Part shown: positions 27,534-43,187 of the stretch, piece after piece
Numbering within the stretch: the stretch's first letter is position 1
Layout of the letters: each line of letters starts with the position of its first letter
DNA from: Conchocele bisecta
Lineage: Eukaryota; Mollusca; Bivalvia; Lucinida; Thyasiridae
Reading direction: 5' to 3'
Assembly (NCBI GenBank): GCA_029237695.1
Contig: CM055272.1
Location: 11,210,042 to 11,274,041 of the forward strand
Length of the DNA stretch: 64,000 bases
Notes under the pieces: generated by a model
Databases searched by the model: none
Told to the model about the DNA's origin: nothing
Seen by the model: only the letters and a program-made list of their open reading frames with translations
Made by a program: the position numbers and the translations under genes

Positions 27534-28401
27534 TTAATCAACTGTAAGCTGAATGTGATTATTCATTCTATCTGCGACTAGAATTTTATCATCTAAAGTA
27601 AATCTAAGATATTTTTTATAAGCATCACTGCGCCAATCACCTTGAAGCTGTATTAATTCTGAAGGCACTCCTGCTTGAAAGGCTAAGGTTGTTCCACCCC
27701 GTCTAAAACTATGAGAAGAATAATTATCCGGATTAAGACCAATAGCCGAAATTAAAGACTTTAACTTATTCTGAAACATTGGGTAAGTGATACACTTATT
27801 CCTAGCAAAAGAAAACAATGGAGTATTACCTGAAACTGGATTCAATTTAACCAAATTGTTGAATGCTTTAACGGGACACAATAAAGAATCAGATTTTATT
27901 AATGGAATTTGCAGTAAACGTTCCCCAAACTGCAAAGTTTTTGTCCAACGAAAAAGTGACTAATAAATTTGTTCCCATTTCCTTAACATCATCCCTTAAA
28001 AGATATTTCCCGGAAACATCTGAATTTTGAACTTGCTACCAAATTGGATTTCCGTGCTAACAGAAAAAAGGCAAATAAGAATAAACACCAAAAACATGTG
28101 TCTACCGGATTGACAAATTCTAATTTATCATGAAATAACAATAAAATCTGGGTGTAATAGGAGCAGCCTGGTGTACACAATGTGGATTTAAGCGATTAAT
28201 ACCCTTCAACGTCAGATTAATTAAATAAGCATTAAAATTTATTTCGACGCCTAACAACAAATGCATAGTACGGATACCACTGATATAATTCCTTATAGCA
28301 TCGACAGATTTGAATGAACGACTTAGAAATTGTGCAAACAAGGAAACTACTTCTGTAGACGCTGGCACAGATATAAACCCGAAAAAAGTACAGAACAACA
28401 A
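27534..28401 (-). pseudogene. Tyrosine recombinase (phage-integrase fold), frameshifted
   Basis: 28401-28120 encodes an N-terminal core-binding, SAM-like region ('VSLFAQFLSRSFKSVDAIR', 'YISGIRTMH'). 27935-27534 (133 codons) encodes the catalytic domain end with HSFRRGG (the H-x-x-R box, about residues 74-80), GDWRSDAYKKYL (about 98-109) carrying the W/H position and the catalytic tyrosine, and LIQLQGDW before it. The intervening part (28120-27935), where the first catalytic Arg should be, is in other frames. In a tyrosine-recombinase retroelement this enzyme integrates a circular DNA intermediate without DDE chemistry. The gene starts just after repeat A1, where other members of the class would have Gag and RT. 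Confidence 0.8.
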
Positions 28402-29870: not shown

Positions 29871-30461
29871 AGTAGTAATGGGTGGCACTATGGGGTACTT
29901 TTTTAACATGTGTTTTTTACATAGACATTTTTTACCGGAACACCGGGTGTCTATGTAAAAAACACATGTTAAAAAAGTACCCCATAGGTGCCACCCCTTA
30001 TTACTCCCATTATCAGGGGTTGGAAACTTCTTGTATTACGCCATAATGCCACCCTGAACCATTTTGTTGAAGATTCGTGAAATTTATCCGGGGGTGGAAA
30101 CTTCTTGTATTACCCCATTGTGCCACCCTGAACCATTTTGTTGGAGATTCGTGAAATTTATCCGGGTGGAAAATTCTTGTATCACGCTATAGTGTCACCC
30201 TGAACATTTAGTGGTATACTGTTCCTCTATATAATTTTCAAATATTTTTGACAACTCCAATATTATCAAATACATATGAAAATTTCCTAAAAATAATTTT
30301 CAGCCACTTCTGACAACTCTAATATTGACATAAGTTAATGAAAATAAATATTGATTGTAAATCAATATATTGGTATTTTTCAATTTATGGGGGAAAATTG
30401 AATACGAGATACGTAAAGTTTTAATAATATTTTATTGAACAACAACATATTTTACAACATA
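29871..30461. repeat. Left TIR of the Polinton, with a terminal palindrome and internal ~75-bp repeats
   Basis: It pairs with 42627-43187. The outermost 118 bp fold into a hairpin (arms 29881-29927 and 29948-29995, loop of about 20 nt). Next come three ~70-80 bp units containing 'GGAAACTTCTTGTAT' and 'CACCCTGAACCATTTTGTTG'. The inner end includes the polyadenylation cassette of the protease gene. Confidence 0.93.
30433..30438 (-). terminator. AATAAA polyadenylation signal for the protease end of the block
   Basis: Minus-strand AATAAA within 'GTTGTTCAATAAAATATTAT', 80 nt after the protease stop. The same cassette (GTTGTAAA, then TTGTTGTTCAATAAAA) occurs after the genes ending at 40205 and 42476. 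Confidence 0.7.
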
Positions 30462-30517: not shown

Positions 30518-31102
30518 TTATGTTAACATATTTGTAACATGAAGTAATTTTGGAAAATGCAAAGACATGGCATGATGATATTGTTGTGGTTTACAACATT
30601 GACACCCGACAGATGTTGAACTTTGTTGAGGTTCTTCGTAGAGTGTTCCAAAGTGATGTTTGAACCAGATCGTTACAGTCCTATCATTCTTGAAGTAATC
30701 TGATGAACTGAATGTTTGTTGAATACAGAGACGCAGAGTATTTCCTCTTGCAATCGCAACCAACACAAACACACAGTATTTTCCACATGTTGTACTGAAT
30801 ACACTTTGTAGTCTCTGTTTGTTAAATGTCCATTTCGTCGAATTGTTTGTCAAGAAATACAATATTTCTTCATGTAGTGGTGGTAATCCATAGGAGTCAA
30901 AGTAGGTTGCTTCATTCTTCTGGTCGAATACAATGGCTATCCAATGTTTTCCAGGTTGATCAGAATTATCCGTGTTGATTATGTACGCTTGGACGTCTAA
31001 TGGTCTGTGATTTGGTAGCTTGTCTTTTGGGCATACTATTCCGTTTAGTCTCTTCAGCCATATTTCTCGATCCAGTATGTGTTGTAATTCGATGGTTTCC
31101 AT
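30518..31102 (-). CDS. Adenain-like cysteine protease (Polinton maturation protease)
   Basis: 194 codons, the usual size for an adenovirus-type (C5, Ulp1-fold) protease. The catalytic set is in order: GKHWIAIVFD with His53, YFDSYG with the acidic partner Asp69, LQS with the oxyanion Gln99, and TTCGKYC with the nucleophile expected at Cys106 (the Cys before Gly). The C-terminal tail has a cluster of cysteines (CQCC). In Polintons and adintoviruses this enzyme is thought to cleave virion proteins during particle maturation. It is the last gene of the minus-strand block, 78 bp after the major capsid gene, and ends just inside the left TIR. The frame is intact. Start at 31102 is chosen because it is the first ATG after the capsid stop and gives a normal N-terminus. 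Confidence 0.92.
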   Translation of the reverse strand: METIELQHILDREIWLKRLNGIVCPKDKLPNHRPLDVQAYIINTDNSDQPGKHWIAIVFDQKNEATYFDSYGLPPLHEEILYFLTNNSTKWTFNKQRLQSVFSTTCGKYCVFVLVAIARGNTLRLCIQQTFSSSDYFKNDRTVTIWFKHHFGTLYEEPQQSSTSVGCQCCKPQQYHHAMSLHFPKLLHVTNMLT

Positions 31103-31179: not shown

Positions 31180-32475
31180 TCACTTCACAAGAAGACTATT
31201 TATTTCAATCTGGTTATCAAACTCTGAGAACACTATGACATTGATGACTTTTTCAAGTGCTCTGGCAAACTGAAGTTCAAGTCGTAGATTTCCAGTTCTT
31301 ATAGGGTGTAGGTGTCCCTCTTCACTGCCTTGGTCAGGTGTCAAGTCATATCCCCATAAACAATATCCATTTACATATTCATCTCTAGTAATATCAAATG
31401 ATTTGTTTTGACCTAGTGAAGATACAGCTTGATACAAAGACACGTACGATTTAAGATATAATTTATATTCAAAATCCGGCTCAAATGGACGGTTGAAAAT
31501 ACCATGACCATTACAATTTACATCAATTTTTGATAGATTAAAATGATGAAAATTGAATGGATTTTTTGCGTATTCCCCATTGAAACTAGCATTATCAACC
31601 ATACCAATGAATATCCGTTTTGGTAATTGCCCCTGAAAAAGATGATCTTCTATTTTTGAGCGCATTCCAGTTGCAATTGTGAATGTTTTGACTTCTACTC
31701 TACGTATAGGAATTGTCATATTCTTTTGAGCTATGAGTCTGTTCATGTCATTGGACACAGCAGGTAATAGCTCAACAGTTCTTACATTGAAACTAACATT
31801 TTCAAAATCTATTTTTACATCTGGTGCGCCAGTGCCTCCTATTAAACAAAACTTTGACGATGCTCTATTGAGTCTTATTCTAATTTCAATTCCATTGGGT
31901 AAATATTTTTCTTGTAAAAATAAATTCAAATGCAATCGTGCTTGAAGTTCGATTACTTTACTCCCAGAAATAAATGAATTCCTCTTATTAAGACCTAAAT
32001 TTGCACCTGCAATGTCAACAATCTCATATTTACTGGCGGTATCTTTCATCCACATTTCACTAGCAGCTAATTGTGTTGATTTACATTCAGCGTTATATGA
32101 CAAAAGATTTTCTAAATATGCCCGAAAAGGATATGTATCAGAATTATTTGTTATCAGTTTATTGTTTAGATATAAATCAATGTTACTGAAGATACTATGA
32201 AAGAAATTGTTAACTGGCGTAATATTATCATCTGCGTCTAACACAGTATTATCTGTTTTTAAAATTTTCAATTTCGAATACATGTAAGATTGAGATAAAT
32301 CTGTCCATTTATCTGTTTGTGGCGGAATTACAAATTCTATTGGAGTATTATTGTTGAGAGAGGAAATCGGAAAATGTTCAATCCACTGACTTTCGTGCAT
32401 AGCAGTCATGGTTGGAGGTACTGATTGAACATCCAACTCCGTCTTACTACATTCACAAGAACCGTTTTGCATCAT
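31180..32475 (-). CDS. Major capsid protein, double-jelly-roll type
   Basis: 431 codons, intact, and the size expected for a Polinton hexon-like major capsid. Recognised from its overall pattern: an N-terminal strand-rich region (QWIEHFPISS, about 31-40), the conserved VNNFFHSIFSNIDLYLN segment (about 87-103), an ELQARLHLNLF region mid-protein and a C-terminal LRLELQFARALEKV segment (about 397-410). Known role of the family: trimeric capsomers of an icosahedral shell. It lies 33 bp after the core-like gene and 77 bp before the protease in the same direction. A decayed copy of its C-terminal part lies on the opposite strand at 41521-41727. No sign of frame damage, unlike the neighbouring minor capsid gene. 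Confidence 0.9.
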   Translation of the reverse strand: MMQNGSCECSKTELDVQSVPPTMTAMHESQWIEHFPISSLNNNTPIEFVIPPQTDKWTDLSQSYMYSKLKILKTDNTVLDADDNITPVNNFFHSIFSNIDLYLNNKLITNNSDTYPFRAYLENLLSYNAECKSTQLAASEMWMKDTASKYEIVDIAGANLGLNKRNSFISGSKVIELQARLHLNLFLQEKYLPNGIEIRIRLNRASSKFCLIGGTGAPDVKIDFENVSFNVRTVELLPAVSNDMNRLIAQKNMTIPIRRVEVKTFTIATGMRSKIEDHLFQGQLPKRIFIGMVDNASFNGEYAKNPFNFHHFNLSKIDVNCNGHGIFNRPFEPDFEYKLYLKSYVSLYQAVSSLGQNKSFDITRDEYVNGYCLWGYDLTPDQGSEEGHLHPIRTGNLRLELQFARALEKVINVIVFSEFDNQIEINSLLVK

Positions 32476-32508: not shown

Positions 32509-32898
32509 TTAGAATATATTTCTCCTTTTTCTACCAAGACCTTTTTGATTGTTACTTGATTTATGGACCTTAACTCTTCGATGTATTGAACGCGACTGAT
32601 GTTTCCTTTTATTTTTCTTTGTTTTTATACCTAATTTATTCAAAAACGATTTTCCTATTGAATTCATTGTTTGTTTACCTCGTGAAATAATTACATCCTT
32701 TGGATTTTTGTGTTGAAGAAAAATATCTTGAGCTAAACCTATTCCTTGTTTCATTCCTTCATTTTTAAAAGAATTTACTCCAGTTTGTATTATTGGTTTT
32801 ATAATTGGAGAAACGGTTCTAATTGCAGATTTGAACAAGGATCCTAAACCTGCCCCATACTGACGTGTAACTCCTCGATATACAGGATGCATTTTCAA
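32509..32898 (-). CDS. Small basic virion core-like protein
   Basis: 129 codons. An N-terminal YGAGLGSLFKSAIR-type segment (about 14-28) is followed by an amphipathic stretch, and the C-terminal third is highly basic (KTKKNKRKHQSRSIHRRVKVH). Proteins with a Gly-rich, hydrophobic N-terminus and basic tail sit between the minor and major capsid genes of many Polintons and resemble adenovirus core or membrane-lytic proteins (pX, pVI) in character. That comparison is inference from position and composition. Its ATG overlaps the stop of the minor capsid gene (ATGA, 32895-32898), which supports the start. Confidence 0.65.
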   Translation of the reverse strand: MKMHPVYRGVTRQYGAGLGSLFKSAIRTVSPIIKPIIQTGVNSFKNEGMKQGIGLAQDIFLQHKNPKDVIISRGKQTMNSIGKSFLNKLGIKTKKNKRKHQSRSIHRRVKVHKSSNNQKGLGRKRRNIF

Positions 32899-33791
32899 TC
32901 TATTTTTCTTTTCATAAAATGCAACTTCACCATAGACTTTCCAAGAACAAAATGAACAGGATTGCCAGAATCTCCTCTTATATTTATATGAATTGTATCA
33001 AATTCAGATTTTGATACAGGCATATAATGTAAGTTTAAAAATTCATGGTTAATATGTTGATTACCACTATCATTTTCAATTGAATTTGATGTTTTGAATG
33101 GTACAACTCTTAAAATCGGAGCTTGAATATGTCCTACAATCGAATATTCAACAATATCAGAGTAAATAAACAAATGATTAAACTCCTCATTTAAATTTGA
33201 CAAATGTGGAAAAAAATAATTTGCATCACTGTTTGGAAAAAATGTATTGGCTAATAGCTTTGGATTTCCACCTAACTTTAAAAACAATGTATGGTTAAAT
33301 TTAATTCCTGTTTTTAGAATTTTCTGGAATTTAAATTTTGGACGTTTCATACCATGAGAATATGAAACGTTAATCGCTTGCTTGTTTTTTTTTTAAATAT
33401 CGCTAAAAGAATCTTGAATGAGATTATCAATTGTTTCCAATACCTGAGCTAATGATGAATAGGATCCAGGTTGAAAATTAAATTTGAGACTCCATTTAAC
33501 CGGAGTACCATCTTCACTAAAGCCTATCTCATTTATATCAAATCTTCTATTTTTTATATCTAAAACATTCAAGTAGAAAGATAAATCTTTTGTTATAATA
33601 TTAAATTCTGTTTCGTCTTTGGTAATATTTAAAAACTGTCATGGAATAATTAATTCCGCTAATGCTATTTCCCAGTTTTCTTTATCGATGTGAACTGTCT
33701 GAGATAATTTAACTTTGAAACAACATTGTGTATTTGATGAATACATATCCATAGAACTATCACTCAGTAATGTTACGTAAAATGAATTCAT
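32895..33791 (-). pseudogene. Minor capsid (penton-like) protein with two in-frame stops
   Basis: A single frame from ATG 33791 to 32895 (299 codons) is interrupted by a TGA near 33639 and a TAA near 33390, the latter in an A-run. The N-terminal segment (FYVTLLSDSS, about residues 4-13, and a WEIALAELIIP block) and the C-terminal segment (FDTIHINIRGDSGNP, in the last 40 residues) are typical of the single-jelly-roll minor capsid of Polintons. Only the last 151 codons are open. Start follows the upstream membrane-protein stop with no gap, and the stop overlaps the next ATG. Because frame is kept across both stops, point mutation (or a base-calling error at two sites) is more likely than indel decay. 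Without it this copy could not build a complete virion vertex. Confidence 0.85.
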
Positions 33792-33793
33792 TT

Positions 33794-34093
33794 TTAACCG
33801 TCTGTAAAATCGAAGCCTCTCTGTGGTTTTTTGGTAAATTTTAAGCCTGGACTTGGTAAAATGTATCCAAGAGAACTACGTAAAAGAACGTGCCATAATT
33901 CACTATTAGGACTTTGGATACTTAAATGAATGATGGCTGTTATAACAATTGCATATATTATAATTACTTGAGAAATATATTGAAATTGATTTTTTGGTAT
34001 TCGTTTACCACAAAATGAAAACTCTTGTTTTTCTATTTTTCCGTTTTCAATTATATCTTGTTCATTCATATTATGTTTGATGTTGAAATCCAA
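33794..34093 (-). CDS. Small conserved Polinton membrane protein
   Basis: 99 codons. A central hydrophobic segment YISQVIIIYAIVITAIIHL (about 39-57) is a clear transmembrane helix, preceded by FCGKRIPKN and followed by SELWHVLLRSSLGYILPSP. This pattern, a short charged N-terminus, one membrane span, then an LW...LGY-P motif, is recurrent next to the capsid genes of metazoan Polintons. I know of no established function, and a role in virion membrane or assembly is inference. Its start overlaps the 3' end of the integrase by 28 nt, and its stop is immediately before the minor capsid start, indicating one compact transcription block. Confidence 0.7.
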   Translation of the reverse strand: MDFNIKHNMNEQDIIENGKIEKQEFSFCGKRIPKNQFQYISQVIIIYAIVITAIIHLSIQSPNSELWHVLLRSSLGYILPSPGLKFTKKPQRGFDFTDG

Positions 34094-35181
34094 CTATCAA
34101 ACTTTGACGGATAACCCATCAAGCGAACTTTAGTTTCCTTGATTGTTTTATTACCTACACGTCTTATACGTCGAGCAAGAACTGATTCAATTTCATATAT
34201 TTCGTCATCTTTTATACCTTGAATTTCCTTTCCATAAAATGTACCCATTATTTTTTCACCATCAAGATCTTCAATTTTATAAGTTGCTGGTAAACTTTTA
34301 TTAATATGAAATATTTTAAATAATTCTTTCGTCCAGTTTGGTAGATAACCCTTTTCAAATGTGCGTTTTGTTTTATTAATACGAACTAAATCACCGACAT
34401 GTAATTTGTTTTTGGCTGGAATAGCTTGTTTAATTCCATACAATGCATGTGTAACCTCAATTTCATTTGAGGTATTGACAGAAATTGGGGCCCTCTTAAT
34501 ACTACGATGGTATGTTCGGTTGTATCCATCAACAATATTTTGTAAAATATCAATATATTTTCTAGTTTGATGATATGTGAAATATTTCCACATACGTGTT
34601 TTTAAAGTTCTTTGAAATCGTTCAACTATACTTGCTTTAGTTTCAGGGTTTTCGGTTGTGAAAAAATGAATGTTCTTAGATTTCAAGAAATGTTGAAATT
34701 CTTTATTTTTAAATTCCGTTCCTTTATCGCTTTGTAAAGACCGTGGCTTGCGTTTTGATGTTTTCAGTATCAAATCAAACGCGTTAATCAATGTTTTCCC
34801 CGTTTTGTTAGGAAGGGGTATGACCCAGGCATATTTTGAAAATACATCTATTACACACAATAGATATCTTTGATTCTTATTTTCGCCTGAGAATTGTTGC
34901 ATATCTGCCAAATCAGCCTGCCATTGTTGATCGATACCTCCTACTATTGTCTTGCGACGTGTAAAACGTCTTTGAATTTGTTTATGAAATGTATATGTTT
35001 TCTGTCTACTCAACCATTCTTGTATATGTTTTAATCTAACATCTGAAAATGTGTTTATTCGTTTAATTGAATCATACAAGTGTTTTGCACTTGTGTAGGC
35101 AATTGAACTTTTTTGATCATAATATATTTTCTTTAGTAATGAATTAAGTTTCTTCTCTTTATGCTTTAATAAGGCTCCCAT
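34066..35181 (-). CDS. Retroviral-type DDE integrase with chromodomain-like end
   Basis: 371 codons, intact. N-terminal zinc-binding-like helical region (about 1-75). Integrase core about 80-240 with the triad Asp90 (WQADLADM), Asp152 (QSDKGTEF) and Glu187 (ASIVERFQ), giving the canonical DD35E spacing. Near the C-terminus KVRLMGYPSKFDSWI (about 348-362) is the hallmark of a chromodomain-like tail. Family knowledge: Polinton integrases insert the element and make 6-bp target duplications, in line with the flanks seen here. The start at 35181 overlaps the upstream gene by 16 nt. It is among the best preserved genes of the element, so this copy might still supply integrase in trans. Confidence 0.94.
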   Translation of the reverse strand: MGALLKHKEKKLNSLLKKIYYDQKSSIAYTSAKHLYDSIKRINTFSDVRLKHIQEWLSRQKTYTFHKQIQRRFTRRKTIVGGIDQQWQADLADMQQFSGENKNQRYLLCVIDVFSKYAWVIPLPNKTGKTLINAFDLILKTSKRKPRSLQSDKGTEFKNKEFQHFLKSKNIHFFTTENPETKASIVERFQRTLKTRMWKYFTYHQTRKYIDILQNIVDGYNRTYHRSIKRAPISVNTSNEIEVTHALYGIKQAIPAKNKLHVGDLVRINKTKRTFEKGYLPNWTKELFKIFHINKSLPATYKIEDLDGEKIMGTFYGKEIQGIKDDEIYEIESVLARRIRRVGNKTIKETKVRLMGYPSKFDSWISTSNII

Positions 35182-35835
35182 CTTTTAAGATATGTTGAAT
35201 CCGACTTTCTTTTTATACCAGTTGGTGTGACTGAAATTTTTGATTTTGGTGTTTTACGATGTTTCATTACTGTTTTAGGTGTACTAAATATTGAATCCGA
35301 CTCAATGTCAGATGTATCAGTTTGATATTTATGCATCCAGTTCCATCGTTCTCTATTACCAACTACGTCTTGTGGTATATTGAGTTCCTGTAAAGCTGTA
35401 CTGAATGTCTCCCAACCTCTGGGGTTAAATCCTTTTCTTTGACGTAAAGTGTCATTAACTAAATCAATAATATTTGATCCCTTTATAAGTTTTCCTTTAT
35501 ATGTTACTAAACCATTTTCATCCCAACTGATTTTTGGATTATCTTTCAGCATGCTTAAAAGAAGTTCTGCTTTTCTTTGCATTGTTTTTGGTATACTTTG
35601 TAAAATCCTATCATTAAGTGGTCTTTTTGTACTTTCATTTACTGTAACATGTTGAGGTTCTAAAACTTTTTTAAATGATTCCTGAAATTTATGTAATGTT
35701 TCTCCGTGCTGTTTTACCTTTTCACTTTCCGATAAATCTGTTCTTTCTAAAAGGTTAGATAAATTGTTTTCTTAGTTTAGCTGTATTTGCAATTTGTGGA
35801 TTCGGTGGGAGCTGAGGTTTTTGACTATTTTCCAT
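35166..35835 (-). pseudogene. Conserved Polinton protein upstream of integrase, frameshifted
   Basis: The likely gene starts at ATG 35835 (MENSQKPQLPPNP), loses frame near 35770 at an A-run, and continues in the frame that ends at 35166 (138 open codons at the 3' end). The conserved part has WDENGLVTYKGKLIKGSN, then IIDLVNDTLRQRKGFNPRGW and LNIPQDVVGN (about residues 20-75 of the 138-residue frame). This combination is frequent beside integrase genes in Polintons of cnidarians and molluscs, but I know no assigned function. The C-terminal region is basic and Ser/Thr-rich. It overlaps the integrase start. The frameshift is a single missing base in a homopolymer and may be a sequencing error. 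Confidence 0.65.
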
Positions 35836-35890
35836 TTATTCATTTCTTCCAGTAAATGAAAAGGAACAAGAGCCATTTTCCTGACCGACA

Positions 35891-36291
35891 TTATTTAACT
35901 AGAGCTCGAATACCTGCTCTGGCACCAACACCAAGTGCACCACCTAGAACAGCTTTACCTATTAATGGTAATAATGGAAGTAAAAATGGTAAAAGACCTG
36001 TCTGATTTATAATATTTTTCTTTTTCTTAATTGAAATTGATTTTGATACAAGTTGTCTGAGATGTTTACGCTTAGGATGCAATTTATGTTTCTGATCAGA
36101 TGTAAGTGTGACATTGCCTTTTAAGAGATTGTGACAACATTCACAAATACACTTAATTATATGATTTGGTGCATTTTTTTTATTAATTTTTCACGATATT
36201 TTTTAGGTTCATTAGCTATAGCCAAAAGCATAGCACCATGTTTTTTAATTAATGGTTTATTTTTACTGGTTTTATTCTTGATCTTACCCAT
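35891..36291 (-). pseudogene. Small basic protein with hydrophobic, Pro/Leu-rich C-terminus, frameshifted
   Basis: Starts at ATG 36291 (MGKIKNKTSKNKP), is out of frame at an A-run near 36175-36182, and continues to 35891. The middle has a Cys-rich KCICECCHNLLKGN segment and a basic HPKRKHLRQLV region. The end has LLPFLLPLLPLIGKAVLGG, a candidate membrane-active amphipathic helix. Proteins of this type (helical, basic, ending in a Gly/Leu hydrophobic segment) are common in metazoan Polintons and have been compared in character with adenovirus pVI/pX. No function is established. Same direction as the block, between the ATPase side and the integrase side. Confidence 0.6.
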
Positions 36292-36384
36292 CTTTATACT
36301 AACAATACTTTATATTGAATGATACAAAATTAATTAATAACTGTATTTTATACGCCTAAGTACTTTTTAATTAATAATTGTATT

Positions 36385-37335
36385 TTATACACCTAAGTAC
36401 CTTTTAATTTTTACTCTTAATTCAGGATTTTTAAACGCAAAATCTTTTAGATGTTTTATTTCTTTTTCGATTTGAATAAGTTTGTTTTTGGCAACTTCTT
36501 TAGCTTTAGGAGATCTCAAAGGTGTTCTTAACGGCGAAAACCTAGCTATTGGATGTTCATCCAATGCATTATATTCCTTGAACAGTTTTTCATGTTCTTT
36601 TGTTGCTTTATTAACAAGTCTAAACCAATTTTCAATTTCAGGTTTATATTTATACTTCTTTTTTTTTGGAGGCTGTCGCTCAAATGAACCAGAATTACTG
36701 GGGAAAGATGTATTGTATGATGATCCAGATTTGTTAGAAGTTGATGTAAATGGTAATTGTGGTGGAGATCTTAAGGAAATTGGTGTCGATGTGAACTGAG
36801 GTTTTTCAGACGATAAGGGTGTATGAAACGCTGATATAGATCTATACGAATTAACAGGACTAGGATTTGCAGACATACTAGACATTGAAGAAAATCTTGA
36901 AGGTTCGTTTTGCTTTTTAGTTGTTTTCTTTTGAGATTTTTTATTTCGTGTTTTCTTTTGTTTTTTAGTTTGTTTTTTGGTTAGTTTTCTATTTTTCACG
37001 TTTTTTGTACCTTTCCATCGAAGTAAACTTCTAATAATTACACCACCTAAAAATCCTCCACCACCAGGTTTTAATATTATTTTTTTCTTTGTATCATCAT
37101 CAATTGTAGGATCCGCTAATTGTTTAACATCTTTTTTATTTTTTTCTATGAAACGTACTGTTTGTTTTGGTAATTTTATTTTATTTTCAACTATATTTTG
37201 GGCAGCTAATGAAAACCATTTCAATATCTCTTTTAATCCAGATTTCAATATTATTTCTCTTGTAAGTTTATGTTGTTCATCACTAAAATTTCTTAAAGCA
37301 TGAATACTATTTCCTGATGTGTATGGGAAAGCCAT
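36385..37335 (-). CDS. Basic, Ser-rich protein of unknown function
   Basis: 316 codons, intact. Residues 1-85 are predicted mostly helical (LTREIILKSGLKEILKW). KPGGGGFLGGVIIRSLLRW (about 89-107) is a Gly-rich hydrophobic motif of the kind found in small virion-associated Polinton proteins. It is followed by a very basic stretch (TKKQTKKQKKTRNKK), a disordered Ser/Pro region (about 145-220) and a basic helical C-terminus. The architecture suggests a DNA-binding or virion-internal protein, an inference from composition. It lies between the ATPase fragment and the small hydrophobic gene, all on the minus strand. Start at 37335 is the first in-frame ATG after the ATPase stop. Confidence 0.65.
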   Translation of the reverse strand: MAFPYTSGNSIHALRNFSDEQHKLTREIILKSGLKEILKWFSLAAQNIVENKIKLPKQTVRFIEKNKKDVKQLADPTIDDDTKKKIILKPGGGGFLGGVIIRSLLRWKGTKNVKNRKLTKKQTKKQKKTRNKKSQKKTTKKQNEPSRFSSMSSMSANPSPVNSYRSISAFHTPLSSEKPQFTSTPISLRSPPQLPFTSTSNKSGSSYNTSFPSNSGSFERQPPKKKKYKYKPEIENWFRLVNKATKEHEKLFKEYNALDEHPIARFSPLRTPLRSPKAKEVAKNKLIQIEKEIKHLKDFAFKNPELRVKIKRYLGV

Positions 37336-37377: not shown

Positions 37378-37975
37378 CTATATTGGAGAATAAATAGTAA
37401 GTCCTCTAACATCCTTATCTGTAATCCATCGATGAAAAATATCACTTCTTAAACGAAATTGTTTTTTAATTCGTGATTGAAAATCAATTAACAAATAACC
37501 ATGTTCCTGAGAAGTAGCATCGTTGTAGGCTGAAATTAAGTGTGTACTTTGTATTTGACGTGCTAATGTTTTAATTTGTAACCCATCACGTTCATTTCTA
37601 AATAAAATCATGTAACGAGAAATAAGACTTATAGTTCTACTCGATTTAGTTTGTTGAAACATATTTTGTGTAATATATATTACACTTGAATTTCTATGAT
37701 GACCTTTTCTTGTAAACCACAATTTTATTTTTTCTTCATCTTTTTCTCCTAACATGTCATCAAATACTACAAGATGTGGAATTGATACATCGGATACAAT
37801 TTCATTTTCATCATCTGGGATACCTTCAATAAATTTGAGGAAATTGAACTTTTCTTGCATAATAGTATAGCTGTGTTGCCATTCTTTGTAACACCATATT
37901 ACTTTTTCGGGTATAATATTAAATAAATCTTTGCGATAATCAATAATCTTTTGTACAATTTTTTTTTTATTATTA
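37378..37975 (-). pseudogene. FtsK/HerA-type packaging ATPase, 5' part missing
   Basis: The open frame of 160 codons from 37860 extends in frame upstream to about 37970 before hitting a poly-A/T tract. It contains the Walker B motif LVVFDDM, then a conserved RKGHHRNSSVIYITQNMF segment, and ends in the typical arm region. The Walker A (P-loop) N-terminal third, which should precede it, is absent, replaced by ~75 bp of almost pure T (plus strand) and then unrelated sequence. Family role: packaging of the genome into the capsid, as in adintoviruses and Polintons. This copy cannot bind ATP normally. Either a deletion or insertion joined at the homopolymer, or the assembly collapsed there. Confidence 0.85.
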
Positions 37976-37992: not shown

Positions 37993-38038
<46 letters not shown>

Positions 38039-38053
38039 TTATTTTTTTTTTTA
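37962..38053. repeat. Poly-T (poly-A on minus) tract truncating the ATPase gene
   Basis: About 92 bp with T in nearly every position. On the minus strand it reads as a poly-A stretch starting some 25 nt after the stop of the Gln-rich gene (38079). It could be the poly-A tail of a retro-inserted transcript containing that gene, a homopolymer expansion, or an assembly artefact. Confidence 0.85.
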
Positions 38054-38078
38054 TAAAGGCACGAGTACTGGTACTAAT

Positions 38079-38599
38079 TTATTTTCGTGGAATCAAATGA
38101 TTTTCTTTTTCTGGACGAATGTGTTTACGATGTGCACCAATTCCACTTTTATGTGAATGTATTTTTTCGTCAACTGTATCACACAGGGCCCTTTCGGCAT
38201 GTTGACTGATCTGTGCCACTGTTTTCTTGTCCAATTCAAACTTGATAGGTACTTTTAATGGCTTTGTGGTAAATGTCAAGTCCCGATTTTCCGACTGTTT
38301 CTCTAGTTTACTTGATAATGTGTCTGTCATACTGTCCAGTTGAACACTATGTCGTGATGCGATGTTCTCTAGTTTCTGTAATATTCTTTCTGTATTGTTG
38401 TTCAGTTTCTGTAGTTCTTTCAATATCATATAATCTTCTTTCTTCTTCTCTAATGGAATGTATACAGGAACAGTTGGCTGCTGCGACTGTTGTTGTTGTT
38501 GTTGTGGTGGTTGGAAGGTTGGCTGATATATATCATTCATCGCCCTGCTAATATATCAAAATCTTGACCGGCAAAATCGTAACTTCTGTTGTCAGCCAT
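38079..38599 (-). CDS. Gln-rich coiled-coil protein of the accessory cassette
   Basis: The open frame 38540-38079 has 153 codons: a Pro/Gln-rich start (QPPQQQQQQSQQP, about 9-21), then an amphipathic heptad-like region (LKELQKLNNNTERILQKLENI, about 40-60) and a basic end. A better-placed ATG at 38599 (CGATACGATGGCTGAC) follows the shared promoter box by about 35 nt, but its frame stops at 38540 after 20 codons in an ATGA-type overlap with the 153-codon frame. Either a one-base frameshift splits one gene, or the two are read by termination-reinitiation. The function is unknown. The stop is followed within about 30 nt by a poly-A tract and not by a histone-type stem-loop. Confidence 0.55.
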
Positions 38600-38662: not shown

Positions 38663-38883
38663 CTTAGAAATTGATAAAAATCAAGTGACCAATCACCGTG
38701 TGTCTTACAAAACGATGCTTTGTTAAAGTTATTTCATTTTTACTTATTTTTAACAATGTAAAATTTGTAAGGTTTAGGATATGGTTTTATATTCTACCTG
38801 AGTTGTGTTTAACAACTAACGGTACATATACAAAGTTATTAGGATATAAATTGAAAAGTAACCTTTTCGTAATAATGTGTGGT

Positions 38884-38899
38884 GGCCCTGAAAAGGGCC
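38884..38899 (-). promoter_or_regulatory. Histone-type 3' stem-loop after the 49-codon gene
   Basis: Minus strand GGCCCT-TTTC-AGGGCC followed by ACCACA: a perfect 6-bp stem, 4-nt TTTC loop, A/C-rich 5' flank and ACC 3' flank, as in metazoan replication-dependent histone mRNAs. It starts 20 nt after the stop codon at 38920. A purine-rich ACGAAAAGG follows about 14 nt later, where histone genes have the U7-binding element. Confidence 0.75.
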
Positions 38900-38919
38900 G
38901 TTTTTTTGTCGTGGGGTTA

Positions 38920-39069
38920 TTATTTGAGGATATCGTTCATCAAATCATCGAACTTGTTCCAGTTATATACGAAGCTATTCGAGGCTTCTCTTGCTTCAAT
39001 TTTCAAATTATAGTAAGGAATTAAATTCCTAACCACGTACTCGTGAAATAAATATATTAAAGTTAACAT
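38920..39069 (-). CDS. 49-residue accessory mini-protein
   Basis: ATG 39069 to TAA 38920. It begins MLTLIYLFHEYVVRN and ends FDDLMNDILK, with a hydrophobic N-terminal segment and an acidic helical end. Support for a real gene is architectural: the shared promoter box and TATA lie about 60 nt upstream, and a histone-type stem-loop lies 20 nt downstream, the same plan as the 90-residue gene at 39403-39675. The surrounding DNA (38625-38905 and 39115-39370) is a diverged duplication covering both promoters and both 3' ends. Function unknown. Small size means the coding claim rests on context. Confidence 0.5.
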   Translation of the reverse strand: MLTLIYLFHEYVVRNLIPYYNLKIEAREASNSFVYNWNKFDDLMNDILK

Positions 39070-39129
39070 CCTAGATGTGTAGAGTCAGGGTTGTACTGTG
39101 AAAATGTAATGCTTTGATTTTATGATCGT

Positions 39130-39156
39130 CTTTTATATCCATCAAACGGATTGACC
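39130..39156 (-). promoter_or_regulatory. Shared promoter box with TATA, copy 2
   Basis: Minus strand GGTCAATCCGTTTGATGG then ATATAAAAG, about 60 nt before ATG 39069. An inverted CCAAT (TATTGGTCAC) lies about 40 nt upstream. Confidence 0.75.
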
Positions 39157-39354
39157 TACTTAGAAATTGATAAACATCAAGTGACCAATAACAGTGTGTC
39201 TTACAAAACGATGCTTTGTTAAAGTTATTTCATTTTTACTTATTTTTAACAATGTAAAAATTGTAAGGTTTAGTTGTGTTTAACAACTAACGGTACATAT
39301 ACAAAGTTATTAGGATATAAATTGTAAAGTAATCTTTTCGTAATAATGTGTGGT

Positions 39355-39370
39355 GGCCCTGAAAATGGCC
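39355..39370 (-). promoter_or_regulatory. Histone-type 3' stem-loop after the 90-codon gene
   Basis: Minus strand GGCCATTTTCAGGGCC followed by ACCACA. Same loop and flanks as the 38884 copy but with one mispair at the top of the stem (A opposite G side). It starts about 33 nt after the stop at 39403, and GAAAAGA follows about 14 nt downstream. Confidence 0.7.
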
Positions 39371-39402
39371 GTTTTTTTGTTTAGAGTGTACACCTGTACA
39401 AA

Positions 39403-39675
39403 CTAATATTCAGTGTAAGTGCGTCGCCATTTGTTGTTTGATTCTCGAGTTTTAACTCTGACAAAACCCGTAGTATCAGGTTTTTTTTCTGTAGTGAAAC
39501 TCTTTCCGTCCTCCATTTCCATTTCTTTGTAAGCAGGCTTTGGTTGTTCCTTTATTCTCCTCAACAGATCAGCCGTAACCATTTGCAGCGTTTCTATGTC
39601 TTTCTGCATTGACCCTACGACTTCGACCAAATCTGCGATCCTCCTTGCCATCATATTGCTTCGATCAGTATCCAT
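39403..39675 (-). CDS. 90-residue coiled-coil accessory protein with histone-type 3' end
   Basis: ATG 39675 to stop 39403. Residues about 8-45 form an amphipathic helix with heptad-like hydrophobics (RIADLVEVVGSMQKDIETL, then MVTADLLRRIKEQ), suggesting a coiled coil. The rest is polar and charged. It is not a histone. The transcription unit looks complete and compact: promoter box and TATA about 50-75 nt upstream, and a histone-like stem-loop 33 nt after the stop. I do not recognise the family. In position and size it resembles small early-type genes of DNA viruses, but that is only analogy. Confidence 0.6.
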   Translation of the reverse strand: MDTDRSNMMARRIADLVEVVGSMQKDIETLQMVTADLLRRIKEQPKPAYKEMEMEDGKSFTTEKKPDTTGFVRVKTRESNNKWRRTYTEY

Positions 39676-39723
39676 TTTTGAGTGTTCGGATGAAACATGT
39701 GAAGTATGTGTTCAAAACACATG

Positions 39724-39752
39724 CTTTTATACCCATCAAACGGATTGACCTA
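39724..39752 (-). promoter_or_regulatory. Shared promoter box with TATA, copy 3
   Basis: Minus strand GGTCAATCCGTTTGATGG then GTATAAAAG, about 50 nt before ATG 39675. Flanking sequence here differs from copies 1 and 2, so the box is conserved beyond the local duplication. Confidence 0.78.
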
Positions 39753-39850
39753 ATTTTGTTAGTTTAGTCATTTTTCATATTTTCGTTCAATCAGAAAGCG
39801 TGTTGTAAACGCGTTTTTACAGTCAGGAGTTTGACTGTAAAAAAGGAAAA

Positions 39851-39996
39851 ATTATGCTAGTGAAGAAAAGAAGAGAAATAAAGAATTATTACAACAATTA
39901 TTTGCAAGACGTGGTTATCATTGGCCTTCCAAAGAAAAGATTGTTTGGAAAGTTACATTGAATAACTTATATCCAGATCTGTCTGAATTATATTAG
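39851..39996 (+). pseudogene. Short coding remnant ending at a histone-type stem-loop
   Basis: A plus-strand frame of about 48 codons (NYASEEKKRNKELLQQLF at its start; KEKIVWKVTLNNLYPDLSEL near its end) runs to TAG 39994-39996. It has no suitable ATG of its own; an ATG in another frame opens 35 codons. Its protein-like end and the stem-loop 14 nt after the stop suggest the 3' end of a gene whose front is lost. The product is unrecognised. Confidence 0.4.
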
Positions 39997-40009
39997 ACAG
40001 TGATCAAAC

Positions 40010-40025
40010 GGTCCTTTTCAGGACC
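40010..40025 (+). promoter_or_regulatory. Histone-type 3' stem-loop with downstream purine-rich element
   Basis: GGTCCT-TTTC-AGGACC flanked by TCAAAC on the left and ACAATA on the right. Perfect 6-bp stem with the canonical loop. CAGAAAGAAAC at 40037-40047, 12 nt downstream, closely matches the histone downstream element that pairs with U7 snRNA. This is the most complete of the three signals. Confidence 0.78.
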
Positions 40026-40140
40026 ACAATATTTTCCAGAAAGAAACACTTGCATTTTATAAATCATATGAATTGAAGTTATAAAATGATAAATAACAAA
40101 CAAGAAAATACATTTCAACTTGTATTCATTTAACAATATT

Positions 40141-40204: not shown

Positions 40205-40924
40205 CTAAAAGTCAATTTTCATCTTCTTGACTGGAACATCAATTTTCATCTTCTTGACTGGAACACTCGGTTCACCCTGGTATTTACGTTTACGACTGTT
40301 CACTGGTTTCTCTGGGGGCTTAACATCCACTGTGTTAGACCTGGGTTTCTGGTCACAATCACAAGCCCAATGTGATTTCGATTTACAGATGAAACATCCA
40401 GCGTACATATCATTTCTAGGCAGCTTCAGATGACTCTCTTCGTTGTAATAAGACATGAATTTTCCAACACACAGGTCTTGGGTGATACTAGGAGAATCCG
40501 AAAATTGAACTTCATGAGAATATGGATTCACAAACACATCCATGTACTTTCCTTGTAGCTTTTGGCTACATTTATTAGCCCAATGTTCCGTTGATTGGCA
40601 GATGTAACATCTGTTAAGTGATATTTCATCCCCTCCATATTTCTCATCGATGCTGAATTTTGTAAACCTCTTTCCTGTAGAAATCAGGTACTCAGAGTCG
40701 CCCGAATAATTGTAAGATGTAAACGATCCAACAAAGTTTCCAATATGTTTTATCGGATAGGTTTTCGGTATGTTGCTGAATTCAACTTCATGAGTAAACG
40801 GATTTACATATAAATTCATTTCACATCCTTTGTGCCAATATTTCATACTTTCGAAATAGTCAGCAAAATGTTCCTCGTGTTTTTGTAGTTGAATGGAAGA
40901 ACGTTCTGTCGCTTGAGAGTCCAT
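40205..40924 (-). CDS. Accessory protein with two zinc knuckles
   Basis: 239 codons, intact. It is made of two related halves, each with an 'NP(F/Y)(T/S)HEV-x-FS' block (FTHEVEFSNIP and YSHEVQFSDSP) followed by a zinc knuckle of C-x2-C-x4-H-x4-C form (CYICQSTEHWANKC and CFICKSKSHWACDC). The C-terminus is basic, with a perfect 9-residue tandem repeat around PVKKMKID and KRKRK-like stretches, perhaps a nuclear-localisation signal. Zinc knuckles bind single-stranded nucleic acid in Gag and related proteins, so a nucleic-acid role is likely. The substrate is unknown. I do not know this protein from other Polintons. It is transcribed away from the 41052 gene across a 127-bp gap with a TATA on each side. 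Confidence 0.75.
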   Translation of the reverse strand: MDSQATERSSIQLQKHEEHFADYFESMKYWHKGCEMNLYVNPFTHEVEFSNIPKTYPIKHIGNFVGSFTSYNYSGDSEYLISTGKRFTKFSIDEKYGGDEISLNRCYICQSTEHWANKCSQKLQGKYMDVFVNPYSHEVQFSDSPSITQDLCVGKFMSYYNEESHLKLPRNDMYAGCFICKSKSHWACDCDQKPRSNTVDVKPPEKPVNSRKRKYQGEPSVPVKKMKIDVPVKKMKIDF

Positions 40925-41051: not shown

Positions 41052-41510
41052 ATGTCACTTGTACCAACAATAAAAATGATGGGACATAATTATGAGTTGT
41101 GGTTACAAAACGATGTTTATCTGGTAAAGAAATCCCGAGAAATACCCCGACAAAAAAAGATAATACATGACACATTCAACAGATGTATGGTTGAACAACT
41201 TCAATCATTAATAAAAAAAGAAGTAAATGACAATTGTTATGGATGTCAGGTTGAACATCCAAGTCAATTACAGCATGACTTGTGCTTATTCACAGATACG
41301 TCTGAACAAACAGATTTATTCATATTGACAGCTCTACGAAAATTAGATCACTATACAATTATGGAAGAATGGTATCCAATTCTCAAAGATATGGCATTGG
41401 ACGATCAAGAGAAATTGGAAGCATACAGACTGTGGGTACAAATTAAAAACAAAATCCGTTTTAGACCCAATGAATCGTGGTTGGAACAGTTAAAAAAACA
41501 AGTCAAATAA
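41052..41510 (+). CDS. Accessory CCHHC zinc-binding protein, full copy
   Basis: 152 codons. The N-terminal part is basic (KKSREIPRQKK, about 25-35). Residues about 57-76 hold NCYGCQVEHPSQLQHDLC, giving C-x2-C-x3-H-x5-H-x2-C, a likely zinc site. The C-terminal half is helical and ends KIRFRPNESWLEQLKK. Small proteins with a Cys-Cys...HPSQ...His-Cys motif recur in transposon-like DNA of aquatic invertebrates, but I know of no assigned function. It has a TATA box 40 nt upstream. A 5'-truncated paralogue follows at 41728. Confidence 0.7.
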   Translation: MSLVPTIKMMGHNYELWLQNDVYLVKKSREIPRQKKIIHDTFNRCMVEQLQSLIKKEVNDNCYGCQVEHPSQLQHDLCLFTDTSEQTDLFILTALRKLDHYTIMEEWYPILKDMALDDQEKLEAYRLWVQIKNKIRFRPNESWLEQLKKQVK

Positions 41511-41520
41511 TCCTGGAAAT

Positions 41521-41727
41521 GATTTCACGAGGATTACGATGAATATGTAAATGGATCTTTTCCAGGACAAAGAAGAGGCACACATAAATCCTATAAGAAC
41601 TGGAAAGCTACGACTTGAGCTTCAGTTTGTCGCTGTAATCGACAAGGTCATCAACTTAATCGTATTTATAGAACTTGATAACCAGATTATAATAATCAGT
41701 CTACGAGAAGTGCTCTCCGACTACTAA
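41521..41727 (+). pseudogene. Decayed C-terminal fragment of the major capsid gene, opposite strand
   Basis: The 52 plus-strand codons ending in TAA 41727 encode a segment clearly related to the C-terminus of the major capsid protein at 31180-32475 (shared PIRTG, then LRLELQF, a DKVIN/EKVIN block, and a DNQI block near the end). Upstream, the 'GATGAATATGTAAATGG' DNA also matches the capsid gene but is out of frame, with about 24 nt missing. So this is a second, diverged capsid-gene end inverted relative to the intact gene. It replaces the N-terminal coding part of the downstream paralogue, pointing to an old recombination joint at about 41728. Confidence 0.8.
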
Positions 41728-42157
41728 CAATGATTGTCTGGTGACGAAATCCAGAGAAACACCACGACGAAAAAAGATAACACATGATACATTCTACAGA
41801 TGTATGGTTAAAGAGCTTCAATCATTAATTAAAAAAGAAGTAAATGACAACTGTGAAGGATGTCAGATTGAGCATTCTTGTCATCTTGAACATGTCAGTC
41901 AAGTACGTCATCAACTGTGTGTAAACACAGGTCAATATGAACAGATATATCTCTTTATAGCTATAGCTGTGGGGAAATTGGATCCATATATAATTATGTC
42001 AAAATGGTATCCAATTCTCCAAGATATGGCCTTGGACGATCAAGAGAAAATGGAAGCATACATACTGTGGGTACAAATTAAAAACAAAATCCGTTTTATA
42101 CCCAATGAATCATGGTTGGAAGATTTGGCTACACAGGTTAAACAATCCTTGAAGTAG
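41728..42157 (+). CDS. Accessory CCHHC protein, 5'-truncated paralogue
   Basis: From NDCLVTKSRETPRRKK onward it parallels the 41052 gene (same KKEVNDNC, AL-DDQEK and KNKIRF-PNESW blocks) to stop 42157. The zinc motif has a small internal insertion: CEGCQIEH is followed by SCHLEHVSQVRHQLC. The first ~18 residues are missing, replaced by the capsid-gene fragment. The frame has no ATG; translation could only begin at a non-ATG codon or as read-through. It may be a pseudogene or a fusion relic. Confidence 0.6.
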
Positions 42158-42158
42158 A

Positions 42159-42476
42159 TTGATACTGAAGACTATAAAAGTAGGAACGGCCTATAGCGGA
42201 ATTATTCTAGGAATAGACACACTTAAAGAAACAATGACACCTCTGACTGATCTAATGAATCACATAGCATACCGGAAAGCATTGATATTGGCTTTCAAAC
42301 TAAAAGTATCAAATGAACAATATCTCACACCATGGATCATCAAGGATGAATTAGAGAAAATAGAGATGTTTGAAGAGTTCAAGAAAGCCCTATTAGTAAC
42401 AACGGGGTTCTTCAAAGATTCAAGGATTAAAGTAGAAAAATTAACATTTGAACAATGGAGAAACGAAGTATTGTGA
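42159..42476 (+). CDS. 105-residue protein of unknown function
   Basis: Starts with an ATT/ATG-region just after the previous stop and reads 105 codons to TGA 42476. Hydrophobic start (TAYSGIILGIDTL), then a helical, charged body (WIIKDELEKIEMFEEFKKAL) ending EQWRNEVL. No domain is recognised. It lies in the same direction as the CCHHC genes and is the last gene before the right TIR, with an AATAAA cassette about 175 nt after its stop. Confidence 0.5.
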   Translation: MILKTIKVGTAYSGIILGIDTLKETMTPLTDLMNHIAYRKALILAFKLKVSNEQYLTPWIIKDELEKIEMFEEFKKALLVTTGFFKDSRIKVEKLTFEQWRNEVL

Positions 42477-42626: not shown

Positions 42627-43187
42627 ATGTTGTAAATATGTTGTTGTTCAATAAAATATTATTACAACTTTACATATTTCGTATTCAATTTTACCATAAA
42701 TTGAAAAAATACCAATATATTGATTTACAATCAATATTTATTTTCATTAACTTATGTCAATATTAGAGTTGTCAGAAGTGGATGAAAATTATTTTTAGGA
42801 AATTTTCAAGAAGTTTCCATCCCGGATAAATTTCACGAATCTCCAACAAAATGGTTCAGGGTGGCACTATAGCGTAATACAAGAAGTTTCCACCCCGGAT
42901 AAATTTCACGAATCTCCAACAAAATGGTTCAGGGTGGCACTATAGCGTAATACAAGAAGTTTCCACACGGATAAAATTCACGAATCTTCAACAAAAATGG
43001 TTCAGGGGTGGCACTATGGCGTAATACAAGAAGTTTCCAACCCCTGCTAATGGGAGTAATAAGGGGTGGCACCTATGGGGTACTTTTTTAACATGTGTTT
43101 TTTACATAGACACCCGGTGTTCCGGTAAAAAATGTCTGTAAAAAACACATGTTAAAAAAGTACCCCATAGTGCCACCCATTACTACT
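42627..43187. repeat. Right TIR of the Polinton
   Basis: Inverted copy of 29871-30461. The inner end includes CAATAAAATATTATT (AATAAA at 42650-42655). The middle contains three ~75-bp units with 'GGTTCAGGGTGGCAC', and the outer 115 bp form the same hairpin (about 43065-43178). It ends at TACTACT (43181-43187). Confidence 0.93.

What the first reader, a model, noticed from the sequence alone, without database searches (positions are those of the whole stretch)
38884..40047. Polinton accessory genes end in histone-type 3' stem-loops
Seen directly: three 16-nt hairpins with a 6-bp stem and TTTC loop (GGCCCT-TTTC-AGGGCC at 38884, a one-mispair version at 39355, GGTCCT-TTTC-AGGACC at 40010), each with the ACC/ACA right flank and each 14-33 nt after the stop of a small non-histone frame. 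The plus-strand copy has CAGAAAGAAAC 12 nt downstream, close to the U7 site of histone pre-mRNAs; the other two have GAAAAGG/GAAAAGA at the same place. Known: in animals this signal gives non-polyadenylated, S-phase-linked mRNAs through SLBP and U7 snRNP. Inference: the element times expression of a gene cassette to host DNA replication. I know of no Polinton described with this. Two signals lie in a local duplication but the third, on the other strand, differs in sequence, which argues against chance.
Basis: partly seen in the sequence, partly recalled or inferred. Interest (0 to 1): 0.88.

Follow-up and report, generated by a model that had tools for sequence, protein, structure and literature searches.

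The report
Virus-like element with histone-type mRNA ends
A virus-like mobile element, whose end-signals lie at hundreds of places in one animal genome, closes several of its small predicted genes with the stem-loop that in animals is otherwise known only from histone messages, so it would likely borrow the cell's DNA-replication-linked machinery to make those messages.

Summary
Two hairpins pass Rfam's histone 3' stem-loop cut-off; the third is a sub-threshold match. They lie in a 13.3-kb Polinton. The host genome (unnamed, probably a bivalve) holds many sister copies: all 20 stretches read are Polinton DNA, with class A signals in 20, C in 15, E in 14 and D in 6. Genome-wide near-exact matches: A 257, C 187, E 236; reversed patterns 0. 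Layout is fixed: C faces A in 58 of 58 exact pairs, E follows A in 45 of 45. Stem changes are partly compensatory and a purine-rich stretch follows, as in host histones. G1 ends carry the hairpin and almost no poly(A) hexamer; zinc-knuckle, g35, g36 and ATPase genes show the reverse; G3 has both; integrase and MCP neither. Scores overlap those of host histone genes. Most likely an accessory cassette uses SLBP/U7 histone-type 3'-end processing. RNA ends, host U7 and S-phase timing could not be tested.

The parts
29871..30460 (+). left terminal inverted repeat of the Polinton
   Evidence: 524 of 605 alignment columns identical to the right repeat; outer end AGTAGTAATGG; flanking 6 bp catgat / cacgat (5 of 6 alike)
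42627..43187 (-). right terminal inverted repeat
30518..31102 (-). protease (PRO)
   Evidence: Pfam Peptidase_C5, 27.1 bits over cut-off 21.3
31180..32475 (-). major capsid protein (MCP) homologue
   Evidence: 350 homologues at E <= 0.001, best 71% identical, named ones mostly from Mercenaria and Crassostrea as 'F54H12.2-like'; no Pfam match; the name MCP is recalled; gene order as in L001
32509..33350 (-). PX-like (32509-32898) and minor capsid-like (32895-33350) genes
   Evidence: hits beside MCP in several of L001-L005; names recalled
34066..35181 (-). RVE integrase
   Evidence: Pfam rve 53 bits over cut-off 32.6
35166..37335 (-). two unassigned frames, g35 (35166-35771) and g36 (36385-37335)
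   Evidence: in sister copies poly(A) hexamers within 150 nt of the stop in 10 of 10 and 13 of 13, no hairpin
37378..37860 (-). putative packaging ATPase fragment
   Evidence: Pox_A32 E 0.021, 14.7 bits, below cut-off 22.8; 40% to a frame of L001; assignment partly recalled
38079..38540 (-). accessory gene G3 (153 codons, coiled-coil-like by eye); 14 of 20 sister stretches carry hairpin class E 24-192 nt after its stop, the window copy has a poly-T tract (38001-38054) there instead
38859..38904 (-). histone-type 3' end A: stem-loop 38884-38899, purine-rich stretch 38862-38868
   Evidence: RF00032 39.1 bits, cut-off 34
38920..39084 (-). frame G2 (54 codons), stop 20 nt before hairpin A; doubtful coding status, relates to a 140-codon frame in L056
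39330..39375 (-). histone-type 3' end B (same class as A): stem-loop 39355-39370 with one mispair, purine-rich stretch 39333-39339
   Evidence: RF00032 28.1 bits, below cut-off; full stem behind G1 in most sister copies
39403..39675 (-). accessory gene G1 (90 codons), stop 32 nt before hairpin B
   Evidence: 150 scored matches in the host genome, E 2.2e-53 to 2.8e-33, this copy included; pN/pS 0.48 over 78 pairs of 13 copies
39841..39996 (+). accessory frame Gplus (51 codons, no ATG in this copy), stop 13 nt before hairpin C
   Evidence: pN/pS 0.53 over 91 pairs of 14 copies
40005..40050 (+). histone-type 3' end C: stem-loop 40010-40025, purine-rich CAGAAAGAAAC 40037-40047
   Evidence: RF00032 36.3 bits; 187 near-exact copies in the genome, control 0
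40205..40924 (-). zinc-knuckle gene (ZnK); AATAAA 61 nt from its stop, no hairpin
   Evidence: Pfam zf-CCHC 22.3 bits over cut-off 20.8
41052..42476 (+). right-end frames g41, a 47-codon piece of MCP, g417 (68% to g41), g424; seven sister stretches have polymerase-like frames beyond ZnK that this copy lacks
   Evidence: polymerase named by eye and from weak matches

Best explanation
The hairpins are histone-type mRNA 3'-end signals carried by a Polinton family, and they are predicted to be cut by the host's SLBP/U7 snRNP machinery so that an accessory gene cassette makes messages that end in a stem-loop instead of a poly(A) tail. Shown: each signal is an AAA(C) - 6-bp stem - TTTC or TTTT loop - stem hairpin with a purine-rich stretch 12-13 nt on; it sits just after the stop of G1 and Gplus, and further (24-192 nt) after that of G3; it is oriented with the gene; it comes in five classes, three of them counted in hundreds of near-exact copies; and it scores in the range of the host's own histone genes. 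Shown by contrast: zinc-knuckle, g35, g36 and ATPase genes of the same elements have no such hairpin and mostly have poly(A) hexamers (the polymerase-like gene too, in the one copy read to its end). Inferred: SLBP binds the hairpin, U7 pairs with the purine-rich stretch and the cut falls between them. Inferred and less sure: because SLBP is limited to S phase in somatic cells (general knowledge), these proteins appear when the cell replicates DNA, or in the egg, where SLBP is stored.
For: RF00032 over cut-off for A and C; 28 of the 29 gathering hits in 15 sister stretches (the other is a tRNA) and 13 of 13 in 5 more are Histone3, 34.1-42.4 bits, against 36.5-42.4 for 8 host histone hits. 20 of 20 sister stretches hold Polinton genes. 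Of 20 G1 copies picked from the upper 44 rows of the G1 table irrespective of hairpin, 17 have the full hairpin and 3 a mutated one. Of 92 G1 matches on contigs C1-C8, 57 have an exact 36-nt class A signal after the frame, 64 an exact class C nearby on the other strand, 78 at least one. Fixed layout. Stem: 98% of 150 cells paired, 8 cells with changes on both sides at two pairs, slid controls 4-60%. Class C hairpins differ by 2.3% between copies while silent sites of their gene differ by 26%. Poly(A) hexamer within 150 nt of the stop: G1 1 of 20, Gplus 3 of 16; against ZnK 12 of 16, g36 13 of 13, g35 10 of 10, ATP 8 of 11, these four with no hairpin. Class C's AGAAAGAAA and host H4's AAGAAAGAA lie at the same offset.
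Against: No RNA data. The host U7 gene was not found (first look capped, controls silent, so not informative), so pairing with U7 is untested; classes A, D and F match the host-type element CAAGAAAGA in 7 of 9 positions and E in 6, against 8 for C (host H2B itself 7). G3 has a poly(A) hexamer within 150 nt of its stop in 17 of 18 copies. Class D follows no clear frame; class F, seen once, is below Rfam's cut-off. Integrase (0 of 5) and MCP (0 of 4) have neither hexamer nor hairpin within 150 nt, so hairpin-or-poly(A) is not a complete rule. C is missing from 5 and E from 6 of 20 sister stretches. Five more distant, partial Polinton contigs show no such signal, so it is not general to Polintons. 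The number of stem pairs with changes on both sides (2) is reached by 132 of 500 shuffles, and the number of pair types is not above shuffles. Class A identity is inflated because those loci were chosen by Histone3 score; in the sample not so chosen, the 16-nt hairpin (2.2% non-majority letters) is only modestly below its surroundings (2-12%).
Confidence: 0.83

Rival explanations
1. The hairpins are relics: an ancestral element captured the 3' ends of host histone genes, and the sequences have been carried along and duplicated without being used.
For: Class C with its flank looks much like the host H4 end. A and B are copies of one block. Many element copies are broken, including this one.
Against: No histone coding sequence was found in 25 of the 30 3-kb loci fetched. 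Class C and E hairpins are better kept than silent sites of their genes. Two stem pairs changed on both sides. Polinton loops are mostly TTTC, those of the host histones seen are TTTT. G1 and Gplus mostly lack poly(A) hexamers while several neighbours have them.
Confidence: 0.06
2. Both systems are used: hairpin genes can be processed as histone messages when SLBP is abundant and are polyadenylated otherwise, as reported for some animal histone genes (recalled).
For: G3 has a hexamer within 150 nt of its stop in 17 of 18 copies plus hairpin E in 14 of 20 stretches. The class D downstream element itself contains AATAAA.
Against: G1 (1 of 20) and Gplus (3 of 16) have almost no hexamer near the stop.
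Confidence: 0.3
3. The hairpins serve another purpose of the element, such as transcription termination, a virus-style hairpin polyadenylation mark, or DNA replication or packaging.
For: Short palindromes do mark transcript ends in some large DNA viruses (recalled).
Against: Not only the pairing but also the loop, the A-rich flank and the spaced purine stretch are those of histone ends. Signals are strand-specific and tied to accessory-gene ends; ZnK, g35, g36, ATPase, integrase and MCP ends show none within 150 nt.
Confidence: 0.06
4. Chance or model artefact.
For: A 16-nt palindrome alone is short.
Against: E 5.9e-8 and 6.4e-7 over all Rfam families in the window; 680 near-exact genome matches of classes A, C and E against 0 for reversed patterns.
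Confidence: 0.005

Closest known systems
Replication-dependent histone mRNA 3' end (Rfam RF00032 Histone3)
   Same: 6-bp stem, 4-nt TTTC/TTTT loop, A-rich 5' flank, purine-rich element 12-13 nt on (10-15 nt in host histones), close to a stop codon; bit scores overlap those of the host's own histone genes
   Different: Sits behind non-histone genes of a mobile element; the downstream element is a weaker match to the host type in classes A, D, E and F than in C
Polinton/Maverick elements
   Same: Inverted repeats, RVE integrase, adenovirus-type protease, capsid gene homologues, putative ATPase, and polymerase-like frames in sister copies
   Different: Extra cassette (G1, Gplus, G3 and others) with histone-type ends; this copy lacks the polymerase; five distant, partial Polinton contigs have no such signals
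Histone3 prediction in coronavirus genomes (PMC7786107, passages read)
   Same: A virus-related report of an RF00032 match
   Different: There 14.7 bits, far below the cut-off of 34 used here, inside a coding region; here 34.1-42.4 bits in sister copies and 36.3-39.1 in the window, at gene ends
Potato spindle tuber viroid loop 27 (PMC6827988, passages read)
   Same: The loop is identical in sequence to the histone loop
   Different: No extended stem, plant host, role in replication and trafficking, not an mRNA 3' end

Membership tests
Histone 3' stem-loop (RF00032) | match at or above the Rfam gathering score | tested here: met
   A 39.1, C 36.3; B 28.1 is below it; 41 Histone3 hits in 20 sister stretches, 28 and 13
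Histone 3' stem-loop (RF00032) | 6-bp stem and 4-nt loop kept by compensatory change | tested here: met
   98% of cells paired, two pairs with changes on both sides; the number of such pairs alone is reached by 132 of 500 shuffles
Histone 3' stem-loop (RF00032) | purine-rich downstream element that pairs with U7 snRNA | tested here: inconclusive
   purine-rich stretch at offset 12-13 in one sequence of each class; host U7 not found, uninformative
Histone 3' stem-loop (RF00032) | transcript ends after the stem-loop without poly(A) | not testable with these tools
   no RNA data
Histone 3' stem-loop (RF00032) | the gene upstream encodes a histone | tested here: not met
   no histone coding sequence in 25 of 30 fetched loci; G1, G2, Gplus and G3 have no Pfam match over cut-off
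Polinton/Maverick | long terminal inverted repeats and ~6-bp target duplication | tested here: met
   repeats of ~0.6 kb; flanking 6 bp alike in 5 of 6 bases
Polinton/Maverick | RVE integrase and adenovirus-type protease | tested here: met
Polinton/Maverick | capsid genes and packaging ATPase | tested here: inconclusive
   homologues in the order seen in other such contigs; names recalled, no Pfam match over cut-off
Polinton/Maverick | protein-primed DNA polymerase B | tested here: inconclusive
   none seen between the repeats of this copy; long polymerase-like frames in seven sister stretches, named by eye and from weak matches; the two relic pieces scanned have no Pfam match over cut-off

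The most novel reading that the evidence does not exclude
A capsid-coding DNA transposon runs two expression programmes: core genes on ordinary poly(A) ends and an accessory cassette on histone-type SLBP/U7 ends, wiring that cassette to host DNA replication or to the egg's histone stockpile programme. It would be the first mobile element or virus known to use the histone mRNA pathway, and the first non-histone gene set of an animal genome that does so on a large scale.
Probability: 0.65. Interest if true: 0.92.

Novelty: new variant of a known kind. Interest (0 to 1): 0.86.

Why it matters
[quoted passage not shown] If these transcripts end as predicted, that exclusivity falls, a virus-like element is shown to use the histone pathway, and a simple question becomes testable: does it time its accessory genes to host S phase or to oogenesis? 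It also gives a natural set of non-histone stem-loop mRNAs in which to separate the roles of the hairpin and of the histone coding region, and it warns that Rfam Histone3 hits in animal genomes need not be histone genes.

Tried and rejected
Viral contigs: MCP alone, MCP alignment and integrase alignment gave no relatives; an exact hairpin pattern gave none. Genome contigs gave five Polinton-like contigs inside bacterial MAGs, none with a Histone3 match at E <= 1. G1 and G3 have no homologue at E <= 0.001 in the protein search; the accessory proteins have no Pfam match over cut-off, at best E 0.013 in PHROGs and, for G3, none in the PDB. U7 (RF00066) was not found in the host, uninformative. 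Chance was rejected by the counts. Class D as the end of a clear gene: not supported. Coding status of window G2: doubtful. Papers (ten searches, PubMed Central open-licence library only): 'histone stem-loop' with Polinton 0 papers, with transposable element 0; the other eight listed none that by title and abstract start describes a Polinton or transposon with histone-type ends (one search listed 15 of 563). Integrase, MCP, a DNA query of the cassette, class D, class F and SLBP searches of the host genome did not complete, so the total number of Polintons, Polinton families without the signal, and the presence of host SLBP are not known from here. That every pattern match lies in a Polinton was checked only for the 20 stretches and by co-location.
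Full report
What was checked. The three hairpins are at the stated places and strands. Rfam's Histone3 model gives 39.1 bits for A (38904-38859, -) and 36.3 for C (40005-40050, +) against a gathering score of 34, E 5.9e-8 and 6.4e-7 with all 4227 families in the search; these are the only gathering-level Rfam matches in the 64-kb window. B (39375-39330, -) reaches 28.1 bits, E 4.4e-4 in a 36-kb scan.

The element. Inverted repeats at 29871-30460 and 42627-43187 bound 13.3 kb. Inside are an adenovirus-type protease, an RVE integrase and a zinc-knuckle protein (Pfam over cut-off), plus homologues of the capsid proteins and a putative ATPase in the order of other such contigs (those names are recalled). 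I saw no polymerase between the repeats of this copy; seven sister stretches have long polymerase-like frames on the opposite strand beyond the zinc-knuckle gene (named by eye and from weak matches to a relic at 50.6-54.1 kb, two pieces of which have no Pfam match over cut-off). The host genome has 1.89 Gb and no name. Named MCP relatives are mostly from Mercenaria and Crassostrea, which suggests a bivalve but does not prove it.

Sister copies. A Histone3 search of the host scored 75 candidates (first look capped), 68 over the cut-off. Of the 30 loci returned, 5 hold histone genes; the other 25, at 21 separate places, show none. I fetched 10-kb stretches for 20 of those 21: all 20 carry Polinton genes. 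Rfam gave 28 Histone3 hits (and one tRNA) in 15 stretches and 13 in the other five, 34.1-42.4 bits; the 8 hits in host histone loci score 36.5-42.4.

Signal classes and layout. There are five classes by flank: A (B is the same class), C, D, E and F. By a script that asked for GG, CC, at least four pairs and a similar flank, the 20 stretches hold A in 20, C in 15, E in 14 and D in 6. Read in the sense of A, the usual order is: zinc-knuckle gene, then on the other strand Gplus ending in hairpin C, then G1 ending in hairpin A, then in some copies a second A-type or a D-type hairpin, then G3 followed by hairpin E, then the ATPase, g36, g35 and integrase; several stretches are scrambled or broken. 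The window copy has a poly-T tract where E should be. Class F lies 20 nt after a 140-codon open frame in the one right-end stretch read (L056); it is below Rfam's cut-off. Exact A and C signals within 4 kb of each other on contigs C1-C8: 58 pairs, all on opposite strands, 48 of them 818-850 nt apart. Exact A and E: 45 pairs, all on the same strand, 36 of them 1340-1560 nt apart. Not every signal has an exact partner within 4 kb: 71 of 96 A, 65 of 79 C and 53 of 71 E do.

Numbers and bias. Patterns with up to 3 mismatches: A 257, C 187, E 236; the same patterns read backwards 0 each. The 20 stretches were chosen by Histone3 score, so the reverse test matters. G1 as a protein query found 372 candidates, 150 of them scored and all matching; 130 of the 150 have no stop in the matched part (counted by eye; some elements hold two). 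From the upper 44 rows of that table I took 20 irrespective of hairpins: 17 have the full hairpin, one has a single mispair (L071) and two are degenerate (L065, L070). Of the 92 G1 matches on C1-C8, 57 have an exact 36-nt A signal 33-58 nt after the frame, 64 an exact C signal within 1.5 kb on the other strand, and 78 at least one.

Signs of constraint. I chose 25 46-nt signals by hand (21 of the 63 classified plus F, 4 from host histones); they align without gaps, and AAA before the stem, the outer GG and CC, the T-A pair closing the loop, the first three loop Ts and the A after the stem do not vary. Two stem pairs change on both sides (CG to UA, 8 cells, which may be few events); 98% of cells pair, against 4-60% when slid. 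The percentage paired, the 8 cells and the covariation score exceed all 500 shuffles; the number of pairs with such changes (2) is reached by 132 of 500, and the number of pair types by all. Class C hairpins differ by 2.3% between copies and class E by 2.7%, while silent sites differ by 26% in Gplus and 13% in G3; my recogniser favours the hairpin. In the sample of G1 ends not chosen by hairpin, the stretch from -6 to +44 is nearly unchanged (0-2.2% non-majority letters) against 2-12% outside, a modest contrast. pN/pS is about 0.5 for G1, Gplus, G3 and the zinc-knuckle gene, which fits coding genes whose old copies have since drifted.

Two kinds of gene end. Copies with a poly(A) hexamer, then with a loose hairpin match, within 150 nt of the stop: G1 1 and 19 of 20; Gplus 3 and 13 of 16; G3 17 and 8 of 18; zinc-knuckle 12 and 0 of 16; g36 13 and 0 of 13; g35 10 and 0 of 10; ATPase 8 and 0 of 11; integrase 0 and 0 of 5; MCP 0 and 0 of 4; PRO 1 and 0 of 2; mCP 2 and 1 of 2; PX 1 and 0 of 1 (the hairpin match there did not require pairing). 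The likely end of the polymerase-like frame in L056 has an AATAAA about 115 nt on and no hairpin. G3 therefore looks dual, and integrase and MCP fit neither kind within 150 nt.

Downstream element. In one sequence per class, the most purine-rich 9-nt window starts 12-13 nt after the stem in A, C, D, E and F, and 10-15 nt after it in the host's H4, H3, H2A and H2B (flanks). Against the host-type CAAGAAAGA, allowing G-U, the matches are C 8 of 9, A, D and F 7, E 6; host H4 and H3 9, H2A 8, H2B 7. The host U7 gene was not found; the control genomes were silent too, so this says nothing.

Reading. The anatomy is that of a histone mRNA end: SLBP would bind the stem-loop, U7 snRNP would pair with the purine-rich stretch, and the cut would fall between them (general knowledge, and passages of PMC6303110, and PMC7786107). 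Histone mRNAs of the clam Lucina pectinata have such a palindrome close to the stop (passages of PMC6210712). Everything beyond the sequence is inferred. The S-phase or egg-stage timing is the least certain step.

Novelty. [quoted passage not shown] Full-text searches for 'histone stem-loop' with Polinton or with transposable element found no paper. A coronavirus Histone3 claim rests on 14.7 bits inside a coding region (passages of PMC7786107). I file the finding as a new variant: a known signal in a known element type, but a combination not found in print by these searches.

Noticed in passing
window 38657, 39153, 39747 (-): Three minus-strand accessory units start with the same motif CAATCCGTTTGATG followed by a TATAAAA box, so the cassette seems to share promoter as well as 3' end design.
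   Followed up: partly
window 38001-38054: A poly-T tract (poly-A on the minus strand) sits between G3 and the shortened ATPase frame, where sister copies with class E have the hairpin.
   Followed up: partly
window 41052-42157: Two related right-end frames (68% identical) flank a 47-codon piece of the capsid gene in the opposite orientation to the intact one; a like layout recurs in L038 and L055.
   Followed up: partly
window 50648-54080 (-): Pieces of a polymerase-like gene in several frames, outside the element, with matches in L001, L003 and L004: probably the relic of a second Polinton.
   Followed up: no
window 24209-25150, 27537-27959, 56229-58935: Frames that look by eye like a Tc1/mariner transposase, a tyrosine recombinase and a LINE (recalled, not searched).
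   Followed up: no
L001-L005: Polinton-like DNA sits in MAGs labelled as bacteria (two contigs in an Escarpia symbiont MAG, one in a Bathymodiolus symbiont MAG, one each in Breoghania and Rickettsiaceae MAGs): likely contamination by animal hosts.
   Followed up: partly
L002:11734-11798 (+): A sub-threshold twister-P1 ribozyme match (28.9 bits, cut-off 67.2) about 480 nt after the capsid-gene match.
   Followed up: no
L006, L010-L013: Host histone hairpins found by the scan all have a TTTT loop, whereas Polinton hairpins mostly have TTTC.
   Followed up: partly
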